Below, one piece after another: positions 3,001 through 22,740 of a DNA stretch of 64,000 nt. The position numbers and the translations under genes are program-made. Each line of letters starts with the position of its first letter. Within the stretch, counting starts at the first letter, position 1. The notes beneath the pieces are model-generated. The model worked only from the letters and a program-made list of their open reading frames with translations. It was not told where the DNA came from and made no database searches. The stretch covers positions 12,194,819 through 12,258,818 of the forward strand of contig NW_024881316.1 of assembly GCF_018691265.1 (NCBI RefSeq), written 5' to 3'. This stretch comes from Tyto alba. Taxonomy: Eukaryota; Chordata; Aves; Strigiformes; Tytonidae.

Positions 3001-3479
3001 TGTTAAAGTCGCCAAAATCCTCCTAGTCGTCCCAGTGGCATCAATGGAAACATTAGGCAGGACCATGCCAACCCTAGCAAAACAAACAAGGTCAAGACAC
3101 AGGCAGGGGCTTTCAGCATGGGCCAGCTATCATTCTCCCAAGCACAGCTCAAGTAAAGTAAAAAGAGTAAAAAAATTCCTTGGGATGTCCTCCGAGAAGA
3201 CGTTCACTGCAGTTTGTATTTCTCATTCTGTGGGCTTTGCTGAAAAATCCCAGCTGTACATCTTCAAGACAGTTATCTTGAAAGACCAATTGCTCTTAAC
3301 GGGTGAGCTGCTCTTCCTGCTCCATGCAGGGTGTAGGTACAGGGCAGGAACCCCTTAAACACTCCCCGACCACCACCTCTACCCGGGGAGCCACCCCAAC
3401 CCTGCCGCAGCAGCAGCACGCACACACCGTGCTCAAAAAGGGGCCCTTGCATGGTCTTCTACTGCCTCAGCACTTCGCA
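1..3479. other. Intergenic or intronic sequence, no gene recognised
   Basis: AT-rich single-copy-looking DNA. Short open frames on both strands show no recognisable domain and no convincing splice structure. The only internal structure I can point to is a T/G-rich simple stretch near 1,517-1,544 and one ancient repeat-like piece near 2,296-2,378, listed separately. Confidence 0.6.
2296..2378. repeat. Ancient amniote interspersed-repeat fragment (tentative)
   Basis: The segment reads like a family of old repeats common in turtle, crocodile and bird DNA. Its marks are a run close to 'ctcactgaagctaatggga' followed about 40 bases later by 'gatttgggccca'. The copy is short and diverged, so I cannot name its class or its true ends. 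Confidence 0.35.
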
Positions 3480-3792
3480 CAGACACAGCAGCCAAGCGCT
3501 GGGCTTTGGTGCCCGTGGCGGCACTGGGGCCTTATCGCCGCCCTCTCCGCCTGGGCCAGCGCAGAAGCGTAAAGCCCCCGAGAGCTGCTGTGCAGCACGC
3601 AGCGAGCGAGCAGCTCCTGCTCGCAGACGTGGGGCCAAGCGTAAAAGTTCCAGCTGCTGGCCTGGAAGGTGTAACCCTAACCCCCCTGCCAGAGAGCGGC
3701 TGCAGGGCCCGGCGGGCGGCGAACCGCGCCGCTGAGAGGCTGTGCGTGTGTGCACGCGTGAGCGTGAGCCGGGGTGTGTTTTGAAAAGCATT
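3480..3792. promoter_or_regulatory. Isolated CpG island upstream of the Gag-like relic
   Basis: By hand count there are about 28 CpG dinucleotides in 3,481-3,780. GC content is well above the flanks, and CpG is close to the expected number, whereas DNA on both sides is CpG-poor. That is the signature of an unmethylated CpG-island promoter rather than of an ordinary GC-rich patch. The island ends abruptly just before a start codon at 3,796 whose context is favourable (A at -3, G at +4). That start opens a Gag-like reading frame. The island may be the promoter and 5' untranslated region of that relic, a first exon of an unrelated transcript, or a regulatory island in a gene desert. Strand is undetermined. 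Confidence 0.6.
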
Positions 3793-3795
3793 AAA

Positions 3796-4290
3796 ATGGC
3801 TGGCTGTTGGCGGGAAAATGACTCCTTTAATTGCTCAGTGGAGGCCTGGCCCACCTATAGTGAGACTGGAGCAGTGCATAATCACAGAGAGTGTAACTGA
3901 TGGGAAAAATGTGCCGGTTTTACTGAGTGTAATAGATGCTAAAAGGTATAACCTGCTGTGTAGTTTAACAGCTCCTATTAAACCCCCAGACAAAGCATTT
4001 GCTGGGATTGTGGAAATTCTACAAAACTGCCTGTCCCAAAAGTCACCAGAGAACACAGAGCATTTCTCTTCTTATAAACTGAATCATAAAAATAAAAAAT
4101 AGAAAGAGCAGTTTCTGAATATGTAGCTGGATTAATGAAATTAACAGAGCAGTGCCAGTTTAAAAGAGTTTAATGATGCTCTGAGGGAAATCCAGAGTGA
4201 AGGCATTCAACAACCAGAAACTGAATGAAGCTGACTTGATCCCTTCTGTGCTACAAATTGTTCCAGCGATGAAGACAACTGCTAAAATGC
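3796..4290 (+). pseudogene. Decayed Gag (capsid-type) reading frame, Ty3/gypsy-like
   Basis: The frame opens at the ATG at 3,796 and is broken several times. The first block (3,796 to about 3,862) contains DSFNCSVEAWPTY. A shift of frame near 3,860-3,864 leads into a second block, from about 3,863 to the TAG at 4,100. That block contains RLEQ, LLSVIDAKRYNLL and APIKPPDKAF. The first frame then resumes at about 4,108-4,170 with VSEYVAGLMKLTEQCQF. Further shifts give NDALRE near 4,172 and LNEADL near 4,218. The order of these blocks fits the amino-to-carboxy order of the capsid-like Gag of Ty3/gypsy elements and of host genes derived from them (family knowledge, matched by eye). The relic sits directly downstream of a CpG island. 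At least four frame changes and a stop make it non-functional. It may be a fossil insertion or a dead domesticated gene. No protease, reverse transcriptase or LTR of this element was recognised nearby. Confidence 0.62.
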
Positions 4291-4692
4291 CAGGGAGCTC
4301 CAACAGCATCTGGTAATCTTTACGACAGATAAACTGGTGGTGAGGCAGACAGCACAGGCGGCACTTGGACTGGTTTTTTTTCCTCTTCTTGTAGTAAATA
4401 ATCTTCAAAGCATGCTCAAGCACAAGCAAAACACTGAAAAAAAAATGTCACAAAGTGCCGTCTCACAAGGGGAAGAGTAAAGGACCTGGAGTCCTTGGAG
4501 AACACTGCAGCAGCTCTACACTCAATTAAGCAGCATTTGGACTTCTTTACAATTAAAGGAACAAGACTTATTACAAGGCTCGTTTCACAGTCTGCTGCTT
4601 GTAACTGCAATAAGGCCGTCAGGAACTGCTCAGAAGTGTATCTGGATGTGACTTCAGCACTGCTAAGTCATGCACAGAGGAAATCCTTGCTG
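4291..4692 (+). other. Possible degenerate continuation of the Gag-like relic
   Basis: Just downstream of the capsid-like part, about 4,340-4,440 has spacing vaguely like a zinc-knuckle segment, but the expected Cys/His pattern is not intact. A 72-codon plus frame starts at 4,495 and stops at 4,711-4,713, just before an A-run. I do not recognise its product. The segment may belong to the same element or be unrelated DNA. Confidence 0.25.
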
Positions 4693-4735
4693 CATTCACT
4701 GTTGCTACAGTGAATGTAAAAAAAAAAAAAAAAAA
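4693..4735 (+). repeat. Nine-bp-stem hairpin followed by an 18-base A-run
   Basis: The bases cattcactg (4,693-4,701) and cagtgaatg (4,708-4,716) are perfectly complementary across a 6-base loop. A run of 18 A follows at 4,718-4,735. A hairpin next to a terminal A-run can mark the 3' end of a retroposed RNA. No flanking target duplication was found, so this remains a description. Confidence 0.6.
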
Positions 4736-5147
4736 TGCAGAATATGCTAAATACCTGAGAAACGAGAGGGTAACATCCAGCTCTGCAAGTGGGTCAATGG
4801 TTTGGTACTGAGGGAGCCAGTACTCTCACAGAGGTAGAGCAGCCCATAGGGGTGTCCTGCTCTGAGGTTCCCCCCTGCAGGCATCAGTCCTGGCACTGGG
4901 ACAAGGCTGCACCTCCTGCAGGCAGCGCAGGCAGCCCGCGCTAGGCAAGTTGCCTCCATCCACTGCTCCCAGTGAGGCAAGAGCTTGCAGCTCCTGTGGA
5001 TGAAGGATGGCAGAGAGGAGGCATTTTCAACATGCGGGATTGCAAGGAGAATTTCATAACCACCTCACCAGGAACTGACAGAATCTAATAGTGCAGAAGT
5101 TACGCTTGTGCGCTGTGGTGGTGAAAGAATCTATGCTAGCTGTATTT
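4736..5147. other. Intergenic sequence, nothing recognised
   Basis: A moderately GC-rich stretch between the A-run at 4,735 and the A-run at 5,148. Its open frames show no known domain, and I recognise no repeat family in it. Confidence 0.5.
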
Positions 5148-5170
5148 AAAAAAAAAAAAAAAAAAAAAAA
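5148..5170. repeat. Poly-A run (23 bases)
   Basis: An uninterrupted run of A ends one base before the left target duplication of the solo LTR. It probably predates the insertion, or it is a simple repeat that has since expanded. Confidence 0.9.
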
Positions 5171-5171
5171 T

Positions 5172-5176
5172 CCAGG
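5172..5176. repeat. Left target-site duplication (CCAGG) of the LTR
   Basis: The five bases CCAGG stand directly before the TG that opens the LTR. They are repeated exactly after the closing CA, at 6,183-6,187. A 5-bp duplication is usual for ERVL-type (class III) avian elements. Confidence 0.75.
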
Positions 5177-5304
5177 TGTGTTGGGTTTGTGTGTGTGGCA
5201 GGATTTTTTGGTAGTGGGAAAGGGGGTTACAGCAGTGGACCCTGTGAGAAGCTTCTTGAAGCTCCCCTGGCTCCAAGTCAGACCTGCCTCTGGCCAAGGC
5301 CGAA

Positions 5305-5354
5305 CCAATCAGCGACGGTGGCTGCACCACATATTTAAGGATAACATATTTAAG
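5305..5354 (+). promoter_or_regulatory. LTR core promoter: CCAAT box and two TATA-type boxes
   Basis: CCAAT lies at 5,305-5,309. The decamer 'atatttaagg' at 5,331-5,340 is followed by a near copy, 'catatttaag', at 5,345-5,354. This order and spacing match the U3 promoter of a retroviral LTR. The doubled TATA-type motif suggests a small local duplication. Whether any activity survives cannot be judged from sequence. Confidence 0.55.
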
Positions 5355-5984
5355 AAGGGGAACCCGGGAAGATGAGTGAGAGTTATGAGGACGAGTTGTG
5401 AAGGAGACAGCTATGCAAACACCACGGTCAGGGATAAAAATGAGGAGGACGAGGGGGAGGTGCGCTGGAGCAGAGGCTCCCCTGCAGCCCGTGGTGAGAG
5501 GGCAGGCAGTGCCCCTGCAACCCATGGAGGTCCATGGTGGAGCAGATCTCCACCTGCAGCCTGTGGAGGACCCCACACCAGAGCAGGTACCTGTGCACAA
5601 AGAAGGATGGGACTGAGAGAAGCCTGTGCTGCTGTAGTTTGGCACTGGATTAAAACATGTGGGAGGGACCCACTCCAGAGCAGCTCAGGAAGGGCTCATG
5701 TCAGAGAAAGTCCATGGAGGGCTGTCTCCCATGAGAGGGACCCCACATTGGAACAGGGGAAGAAAGTGAGGAGTCGTCCCCTGAGGAGGAAGGAGCAGTG
5801 GAACTGACCTCACACCCCAACCCATGCACCCCTGTGCTGCTGAAGCTGAGGAGGTGGAGAAATCATCAGCAAAGCTGAGCCCAGGAAGAAGGGAAGGGTG
5901 GGAGGAAGGTGTTTTTAAGATGCAGTTATACTTCTTATTGTCCTACTCTGTTTGTCAAGTGTTGTCACTGTTGTTAGTGTTTGA

Positions 5985-9816: not shown

Positions 9817-10974
9817 CCCCTGGAAACTGATCAAATATCTATGGGGATAAATTTTTAGTCACAACACTGCATTTCAGTGACTAAATACTGCTGATGTCTC
9901 TCTTAGTGACTCAGTTTTCTGTTATTTCAAGAGGAAGTATGTCTACTCCTTCATGATAAGGGAAGAAGCCTGAATTCTGCAGAAATTTCTCAAGTCTATG
10001 GAGTGCCATTACGTCTGGTCACAGACTAAACAAACACACCCAACAACATATGGAATTAAGGGCTAAGGAGAAAGTCCACCAATATGAAAGGAACTGTTTC
10101 TTCAAATGTTTTGGATCAAGCCTCACATTTCCACTGGAAAAACCTTCACAGCTCATTGTATTAGGAATAAGTAAAGTGAGGGTGTTGCTTCATGAACACG
10201 CGTGCTTTAAATTCTCTGTAAATGATGTATATCAGAGATGGCTTTTGTCGCCATCAGACAATGTTTCTTTGGCTGCCAAAATGGAAAATGGACAAGTTCC
10301 CTGATTTCTACAAGAGCCAGTCAGTCAGTCCACCATGGAAGACTTGAGACGCAGCGGCTCAGCCCTCACCTTGCTCTTCCCATGGAAATAAAAGGGACTT
10401 TTATGGCTTTTACTTCAAGGAAAGAGAATGACAATGTTCCTGAGGGTCTGTAAGAATCGCACCCTCTGCCTAGCACTCCTAGAAGGGCTAAACCCACACC
10501 ACCAAGGCTGTGCTTTCCCATTTCCTTACAAATGTACCTCTTTATGACTTAATACTATTATTAAGGTTCGTGGGGTTTCATATTCAGGGCCAAATTATGT
10601 TTGATTTATACTTTGTGCTTTTCCAGGAAGAAGCTCACCACGTTGAGAAGCACCTGCCTCAGTGGGTGAGCTCCTCTAAGCAAGAAGCCCTGATCTTCCA
10701 GAAGGATGGAGCACTGGACTGCAGTGCTCCCCAGTGAATCAGCCGCTGGGAACCTCAGTGGCGCGTTTTTCTGTGATGGGAGGCGTCAGCATTTGGCCAA
10801 GAATCTCTCCGTCCCTTAACAGTGCACTGTCAGATACAGCAATCTTGTGGTTTTTATCTACAGCACCATTATTTTCCCTTTCTTTGTGTTTGCTCAGTGA
10901 ATTAAGTTATTTTGGAGCAGAGCCAGCATGCTTCTTGGACTCTATCTGAATATATTCCCATACACTTTCATTGT

Positions 10975-22009: not shown

Positions 22010-22740
22010 AGGACCCTCCTCAGTAGAGGGAGATCAGATTAATGAAAAATTGGACATACAAAAGTCCATGGTACCCAATGGGATACACACGAGTGCTGAG
22101 AGAGCTGGCCAGTGTCATTGTGAGGCCGCTCTTTATCATCACTGAAAGATTATAGCAAATGGGAGAGGTTTCTGAGGAATGGAATAAATATATGTCACTG
22201 CTATCTTCAAGAAAGACAAAAAAGAGGATCTGGGGAATGAGGCTAGTCAGTCTCATCTGTATCCCAGGGAAAGGATAGAGCAAATAATCCTGGAAACATT
22301 TCCAAAGATATTAAGGGCAAAAAAGGTTACTAGGAATAGTCAGCATAGATATACAATGGACAAATCATGCTTGACCAATCTGACAGCCTTCTATGATGAT
22401 TTGACTAGTCTGATGGATGAAAAGAGAGCAGTGAATGTAATTTATCTTGATTGTAAAAAGGCCTTTGACATTGTCTTTCATAATATCCTCACTGACAAGG
22501 AGGGTGAAGTACATCCTGTTTAAGTGGACAGTGAGGCGGATTGAAAACAGTCTGAATTGACTAGCTCAATGGGCTGGTGAACAGTGGCAAAGAGTCCAGT
22601 TAGAGGCCATGCACTACTGGTGTGCACGAAGGGTTGATACTGGAGCCAGCCGACATATGGGGGTAGTCTGAGAGATCTGGCACTGTTCAGCACAAACATT
22701 AACATAATTTTACAGACCATACAAAATTATTGGCCCTATG
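22010..22740 (+). mobile_element. CR1 LINE fragment, reverse-transcriptase region
   Basis: Sense-strand CR1 open reading frame 2 sequence. Landmarks are 'acaaaagtccatggtacccaatg', 'ctagtcagtctcatctgtatccc', 'aatcatgcttgaccaatctgac' and 'gtggacagtgaggcggattgaaaac'. At about 22,433-22,491 the frame reads AVNVIYLDCKKAFDIVFHNI. That is the reverse-transcriptase motif block containing the first catalytic aspartate region of CR1-type enzymes. The frame is interrupted elsewhere, so the copy is inactive. It covers an internal part of the element, without the 3' end, and lies 5 kb downstream of the separate CR1 3' end at 16.6 kb. Confidence 0.9.

What the first reader, a model, noticed from the sequence alone, without database searches (positions are those of the whole stretch)
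3796..4290. Ty3/gypsy-type Gag relic in an avian-looking genome
Blocks of a capsid-like Gag appear in correct order across several broken frames, beginning at a well-placed ATG. Birds are generally reported to carry very little Ty3/gypsy sequence. This is therefore either a very old fossil from before bird origins or the remains of a host gene domesticated from such an element. The preserved start context and the adjoining CpG island favour a former host gene (inference).
Basis: partly seen in the sequence, partly recalled or inferred. Interest (0 to 1): 0.75.

Follow-up and report, generated by a model that had tools for sequence, protein, structure and literature searches.

The report
Dead Ty3/gypsy element, probably bird genome
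The stretch is the rotted front end of a very old jumping element of the Ty3/gypsy kind, one of at least seven dead copies scattered over this bird-like genome, and there is no good evidence that it was ever a working host gene.

Summary
In detail: Gag blocks lie in order across all three + frames from window 3784, and the remnant runs further than reported, to about 4820. 'Very old fossil' is supported; 'former host gene' is not. All 7 places from one own-genome search (query and window included) are homologous at DNA level, on 7 contigs. The CpG island is not detectably shared. The copies form a near-star tree, K2P 0.44-0.79, with no codon-position signal as a set. One copy keeps an RNase H piece over two Pfam cut-offs, with a DAS motif that 27 of the 30 best RNase-H-profile loci here lack, and shares a probable integrase block with another copy: a Ty3/gypsy-like order. 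Eight database proteins all match the window copy best; the four that reach its frameshift share it. Age is roughly 85-200 million years at a published bird rate. Against: no significant profile hit to Gag itself, no LTRs found, and the window copy is the slowest of seven with a weak, non-significant third-position excess.

The parts
3331..3790 (.). CpG-rich flank (CpG island by GC and o/e), apparently host flank
   Evidence: GC 0.66, CpG o/e 0.69; no homology to other copies found upstream of 3784, though C61 and C69 share about 52 more bases there with each other; 3620-3679 resembles the flank in database protein P0004 (tblastn E 1.2e-4; 30.8 bits against at most 25.8 in 100 shuffles)
3784..4820 (+). 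whole recognisable remnant of the element: gag into the protease region, decayed, no open gag
   Evidence: DNA homology to six other loci; local alignments to C18, C61 and C69 start at 3784; conservation among 7 copies falls to background after about 4820; controls
3796..3864 (+). Gag N-terminal piece from the ATG, frame 3784 (MAGCWREN...AWPTYSE)
   Evidence: translation; DNA homology from 3784 to C18, C61 and C69, from 3826 to C66 and from 3827 to C16
3863..4075 (+). capsid-like piece, frame 3785, inside an accidental open frame 3785-4102
   Evidence: tblastn with C66, C18, C53 and C61 pieces: E 8e-18, 2e-10, 2e-8, 2e-4 against 2 kb; 2.6e-16, 7e-9, 7e-7, 0.006 against the whole window; 8 database proteins in this frame
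4129..4213 (+). C-terminal capsid pieces: GLMKLTEQCQF (4129-4161, frame 3784) and FNDALREIQSEGIQQ (4169-4213, frame 3785)
   Evidence: tblastn with the C53 piece, E 0.008 and 0.06 against 2 kb, not at E<=0.01 against the whole window; DNA homology to C18 (to 4334) and, up to 4189, to C53 covers it
4215..4316 (+). probable end of the Gag core (EADLI..AMKTTAK in frame 3786, NARELQ in frame 3785)
   Evidence: read by eye against recalled Gag features; DNA homology to C18 runs to 4334
4578..4752 (+). protease-region remnant (piece 4650-4706 in frame 3786)
   Evidence: DNA homology to C61, E 5e-7; tblastn with a C61 piece, E 6e-4 against 2 kb, not at E<=0.01 against the whole window. That this region is protease is read by eye from C61; Pfam gave no hit

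Best explanation
Window 3784-4820 is the decayed gag and protease-region part of one copy of a Ty3/gypsy-type LTR retrotransposon. In its time the element made Gag particles, copied its RNA with its own reverse transcriptase and RNase H, and inserted copies elsewhere (inferred from its relatives). Copies landed at several places in an ancestor's genome, stopped moving, and have since collected frameshifts, stops and deletions; as a set they show no sign of selection. The window copy was already frameshifted before the sources of at least four of the eight related database proteins diverged. It has no function today that I can see, and the CpG island is most likely neighbouring host DNA.
For: 7 of 7 places from the own-genome search with the C66 piece (query and window included) are homologous at DNA level. 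Copies differ in their deletions and breaks, and their flanks are unrelated apart from common repeats. Near-star tree, terminal branches 0.22-0.48, internal 0.01-0.07. Codon-position identity 0.576/0.625/0.602, permutation p 0.52. C66 RNase H piece over both Pfam cut-offs when scored alone: PF17919 31.6 bits, PF17917 29.7 bits; in the longer frame 27.4 (below) and 25.1 (above). It keeps a DAS motif, found in 3 of the 30 best RNase-H-profile loci, each of the three with stops. Probable integrase block shared by C66 and C69 (71% over 108 bp; rve_3 E 0.096 in C69). 8 of 8 database proteins are closest to the window copy; the 4 that reach the frameshift (P0001-P0004) share it.
Against: No significant Pfam or PDB hit for the Gag, nucleocapsid or protease pieces. 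No LTRs found. No credible pol hit in the strand tested of the window, C18, C53, C61 or C16 flanks, nor an integrase hit in C66 downstream. Reverse transcriptase itself was not found. Both RNase H profiles also ring over cut-off for ERV-like loci, so Ty3 against retrovirus rests on the DAS motif and the lack of similarity to the 30 loci. The window copy is slower than its sisters.
Confidence: 0.85

Rival explanations
1. Former host gene: the window copy of gag was domesticated, kept under selection for a time, then lost before its present carriers split. The other copies are ordinary relics.
For: Window copy has the shortest branch (0.225) and is slower in 12 of 30 and faster in 0 of 30 relative-rate tests at p<0.01. 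Its private changes fall 4/9/13 on codon positions 1/2/3 (of 53/60/61 sites). It stands next to a CpG island.
Against: Third-position excess p=0.084 one-sided, not corrected for 7 copies. The window was picked because it is well preserved and the columns are taken on it (bias). Position 2 is not the slowest position, as expected in a gene. None of the 8 related proteins is an open Gag (75-166 residues), and searches with longer candidate lengths added none. Frame ends vary: 4 of 8 start downstream of the ATG at 3818, P0003 and P0008 read past the stop at 4100, P0004 ends before it.
Confidence: 0.08
2. Remnant of an endogenous retrovirus rather than a Ty3/gypsy element.
For: The RNase H profiles hit ERV-like loci too, retroviruses share the order gag-pro-pol, and the genome is rich in ERV-like loci.
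Against: The C66 RNase H piece keeps Asp-Ala-Ser where 27 of the 30 best RNase-H-profile loci do not (several of the 27 are near-identical to each other). By established knowledge (recalled) retroviruses have a degenerate domain at that place. The best of the 30 loci scores only 24.6 bits against the C66 piece.
Confidence: 0.06
3. The 105-residue open frame 3785-4102 is itself a small conserved protein today.
For: Eight protein clusters, 79-94% identical to it.
Against: The database lists only open frames, so openness is selected. Starts and stops differ among the eight, its first quarter is out of the gag frame, and the partner gag pieces lie in other frames.
Confidence: 0.01

Closest known systems
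Ty3/gypsy LTR retrotransposons (Metaviridae) of vertebrates, such as those of turtle, alligator and lizard
   Same: Gag blocks followed by protease region, RNase H with Asp-Ala-Ser and a probable integrase block in sister copies; dispersed copies
   Different: All seven copies seen are dead and little or no pol is recognised; no LTR recognised. PMC11011659 (passages) counts 1 metaviral capsid-like ORF in chicken, 13 in alligator and 32 in painted turtle.
Domesticated metaviral capsid genes (ARC, PNMA, RTL/PEG10)
   Same: Derived from the same part of the same kind of element
   Different: Those are working genes (ARC orthologues in all tetrapods, PMC11011659). The window copy is frameshifted and one of a dispersed set.
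Very old repeats and virus fossils still readable in sauropsid genomes
   Same: Old relics that have decayed without function
   Different: PMC4316615 (passages) describes >200 My old relics as recognisable in the slow genomes of crocodilians and turtles and proposes that birds purged old copies; here several survive in a bird-like genome.

Membership tests
Ty3/gypsy (Metaviridae) retrotransposon | Gag with capsid and nucleocapsid recognised by a profile | tested here: inconclusive
   No Pfam family at significant E for window or sister pieces; motif reading is by eye and recalled
Ty3/gypsy (Metaviridae) retrotransposon | Reverse transcriptase followed by a catalytic-type RNase H with the Asp-Ala-Ser motif | tested here: inconclusive
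   RNase H part met in sister copy C66: PF17919 and PF17917 over cut-off when scored alone, DAS present, absent in 27 of the 30 best RNase-H-profile loci. Reverse transcriptase itself not found, and nothing in the window copy
Ty3/gypsy (Metaviridae) retrotransposon | Order gag, protease, RT, RNase H, integrase | tested here: inconclusive
   Relative positions fit in C66 and C69, but the integrase profile E is 0.096 in C69 and absent in C66, and protease is read by eye
Ty3/gypsy (Metaviridae) retrotransposon | Flanking long terminal repeats | tested here: inconclusive
   None found by up-against-down comparison at 6 of 7 loci; at C16 one repeat pair (66%, 202 bp) far from the element's edges; old LTRs may be lost
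Ty3/gypsy (Metaviridae) retrotransposon | Dispersed copies at unrelated sites | tested here: met
   7 places on 7 contigs, flanks unrelated apart from common repeats
Domesticated gag host gene | Open, conserved gag frame at one locus | tested here: not met
   Gag in three frames with stops; the frameshift is shared by the 4 of 8 relatives that reach it and none of the 8 is an open Gag
Domesticated gag host gene | Signature of purifying selection on the protein | tested here: inconclusive
   None in the set of copies; weak non-significant hint in the window lineage
Domesticated gag host gene | Intact orthologue at the same site in turtles, crocodiles or other birds | not testable with these tools
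   No vertebrate genome besides G000 could be searched; the source organisms of P0001-P0008 are not named

The most novel reading that the evidence does not exclude
The window copy served its host for a while: a sauropsid gag gene (or a conserved regulatory stretch) taken from this Ty3/gypsy family, under selection for part of its life and lost before the living carriers split. That would explain why it decays more slowly than its six sisters and alone leans towards third-position changes.
Probability: 0.1. Interest if true: 0.6.

Novelty: new member of a known kind. Interest (0 to 1): 0.36.

Why it matters
Birds are often described as holding very little Ty3/gypsy sequence (one capsid-like ORF in chicken in PMC11011659; the duck paper PMC10989122, uses the name more widely). 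This genome keeps at least seven relics of one family, plus three further loci with Ty3-like RNase H pieces. Such relics can show when this lineage of elements died out on the way to birds, and they give fixed markers to look for in crocodiles and turtles. The case also shows that a preserved start context and a nearby CpG island are weak evidence for a former host gene.

Tried and rejected
Direct recognition of Gag by Pfam and PDB sequences: no significant hit; DUF7083 E 0.11 and others are chance level. Protein database with longer candidate lengths, to reach full Gag or Gag-Pol: 53 candidates, none at E<=0.01; 63 candidates, only P0004 at E<=1. Viral contigs by protein and by alignment: no relative. 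A protease-motif pattern hit one phage-like contig (ORFs), chance. Structure prediction: switched off. LTR search: nothing usable. dN/dS between window and C66: dS 0.48, dN 0.29 over 57 codons, differences 15/13/17 by codon position, no excess. A dinucleotide-shuffle test of the stretch downstream of 4035 against C66 alone was weak (12 of 200 shuffles as good) and upstream of 3825 it was nil (69 of 200). I first took the copies to be gag-only and dropped that after the RNase H hit. PF17919 as a Ty3-specific marker was rejected: 736 candidates, 150 scored; I inspected the best 30, and 27 look like ERVs. Duck paper PMC10989122 (passages) counts 467 'Gypsy' in duck and 165 in chicken, but also 1586 in mouse; I take that label to include ERVs (inference).

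Full report
WHAT WAS CHECKED. The finding says that blocks of a capsid-like Gag appear in order across broken frames at 3796-4290. Translation shows this directly: the start from ATG 3796 is in frame 3784, the capsid piece 3863-4075 in frame 3785, GLMKLTEQCQF in frame 3784, FNDALRE in frame 3785, and later pieces in frames 3786 and 3785. The genome holding the window has 1.25 Gb in 70 contigs. It is not named, and a bird is an inference.

SISTER COPIES. A search of the own genome with the window piece found one other place, C66, 57% identical over 58 residues. A search with the C66 piece gave 7 rows at E<=1: C66 itself, the window, C18, C53, C16, C61 and C69. The last three had E of only 0.12 to 0.29. 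DNA comparison then supported all of them: window 3784-4820 hits the six other loci with E between 2e-47 and 3e-20, nothing at E<=1e-3 in nine flank loci (89,019 bases), and 0 of 50 shuffled queries hit. The number is a lower bound, since only the best candidates are scored. Alignments of the window to C18, C61 and C69 start at window 3784; C61 and C69 share about 52 further bases upstream with each other, which the window does not detectably have. C18 has AAAAGCATTA followed by an ATG in the same alignment columns as the window's ATG, so the well-placed ATG is the element's own. The CpG island upstream is not detectably shared. Shared conservation fades near window 4820. At protein level only the 3863-4075 block is significant against the whole window; the other blocks are significant or near it only against the 2 kb around, and lean on the DNA alignments.

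WHAT KIND OF ELEMENT. No Gag, nucleocapsid or protease piece reaches significance with Pfam or PDB sequences. The identification comes from pol pieces in sister copies. In C66, about 2 kb downstream of gag on the same strand, a 62-residue piece scored alone is over the curated cut-offs of PF17919 (31.6 bits) and PF17917 (29.7 bits); in the longer frame it had 27.4 and 25.1 bits, the first below its cut-off. Those profiles also detect ERV-like loci. Of the 30 best loci among 150 places scored by PF17919 in this genome, 27 lack the Asp-Ala-Ser motif and three have it, each with stops; several of the 27 are near-identical to each other. The C66 piece has it. C66 and C69 share a block of 108 bp (71%), which in C69 overlaps a weak rve_3 integrase match, E 0.096, and reads like an integrase core by eye; C66 itself gave no integrase profile hit. 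The order is gag, protease region, RNase H, integrase. The window copy, C18, C53, C61 and C16 gave no credible pol hit on the strand tested. In C61 the downstream frames read by eye as nucleocapsid and protease; this is recalled knowledge, not a profile result.

HOST GENE OR DEAD ELEMENT. Over window 3826-4235 the 21 pairs of copies have K2P distances of 0.443-0.787, mean 0.613. Identity by codon position over 3863-4099 is 0.576, 0.625 and 0.602, permutation p 0.52. Window against C66 differs at 45 of 171 sites, 15/13/17 by codon position. The tree is close to a star. This is what neutral decay after a burst looks like. Results the other way: the window copy has the shortest branch, is slower in 12 of 30 and faster in 0 of 30 relative-rate tests at p<0.01, and its private changes fall 4/9/13 on codon positions 1/2/3 (one-sided p 0.084, one of seven copies tested). 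The window was noticed for being readable and the alignment columns were taken on it, so bias is expected. I leave this open.

OTHER ORGANISMS. The protein database gave 8 clusters at E<=0.001 among 9 candidates, mostly from unnamed assemblies, 79-94% identical to the window piece. All 8 are closer to the window copy than to any sister. P0001-P0004 reach the frameshift and share it; P0005-P0008 start downstream of it and do not bear on it. So the frameshift is older than the split of at least those four sources. P0004 also carries flank resembling window 3620-3679 (E 1.2e-4; 30.8 bits against a maximum of 25.8 in 100 shuffles) with no significant match to the loci of the other copies, which supports the same chromosomal site. 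Frame ends differ: five end at the same stop, P0003 and P0008 run past it and P0004 ends before it. That argues against a small protein in use. The database lists only open frames, so it cannot show how many relatives are closed.

AGE. With 1.91e-9 substitutions per site per year, a rate printed in PMC10989122 (passage), T=K/2r (my arithmetic) gives 85 My for window-C66 over the ungapped 171 sites (JC 0.324 from the 45 differences), 116 My for the smallest and 206 My for the largest of the 21 K2P values, and 160 My for their mean. Alignment noise, uneven rates and divergence before insertion make this rough.

LITERATURE. Ten searches were answered; of papers only listings and passages were seen. 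PMC11011659 reports one metaviral capsid-like ORF in chicken against 13 in alligator and 32 in painted turtle. PMC4316615 describes slow crocodilian and turtle genomes as keeping relics >200 My old and proposes that birds purged old copies. PMC5486457 finds low diversity of retrotransposons in five bird genomes; PMC5753468 says that BEL and DIRS were not detected in birds. I found no paper in these searches that describes this family; absence from these listings proves little.

Noticed in passing
L026 (G000:C70:27112951), L028 (C36:23901789), L030 (C58:31104066): Three further decayed RNase H pieces with the Asp-Ala-Ser motif, each with 1-2 stops, look like other Ty3/gypsy relics in the same genome; not shown to be the same family.
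   Followed up: partly
window 5166-5613 (possibly on to about 6190): A dispersed repeat that also lies near the C66 copy (65%) and, in part, the C53 copy (66%); looks like an avian ERV LTR (LTR label recalled).
   Followed up: no
window 22188-22523, + strand: CR1-like reverse transcriptase fragment; Pfam RVT_1 E 0.0037, below cut-off (CR1 label recalled).
   Followed up: no
window 3331-3790: CpG island with no gene identified; P0004 reads an open frame from flank resembling it into the gag piece.
   Followed up: partly
window 10188-10271, + strand: Weak tblastn match (36%, E 0.004 within the whole window) to the C53 gag piece, better than that piece's match in the relic itself; chance or another scrap, not examined.
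   Followed up: no
G000, whole genome: PF17919 scored 150 of 736 candidate places, many in open frames of several hundred to over 1000 codons and several in tight groups (for example C66 22.45-22.77 Mb): probably young ERVs.
   Followed up: no
C16 locus, about 2.3 kb upstream and 4.9 kb downstream of the gag start: A pair of direct repeats, 202 bp at 66%, flanking the copy at a distance; not at its edge.
   Followed up: no
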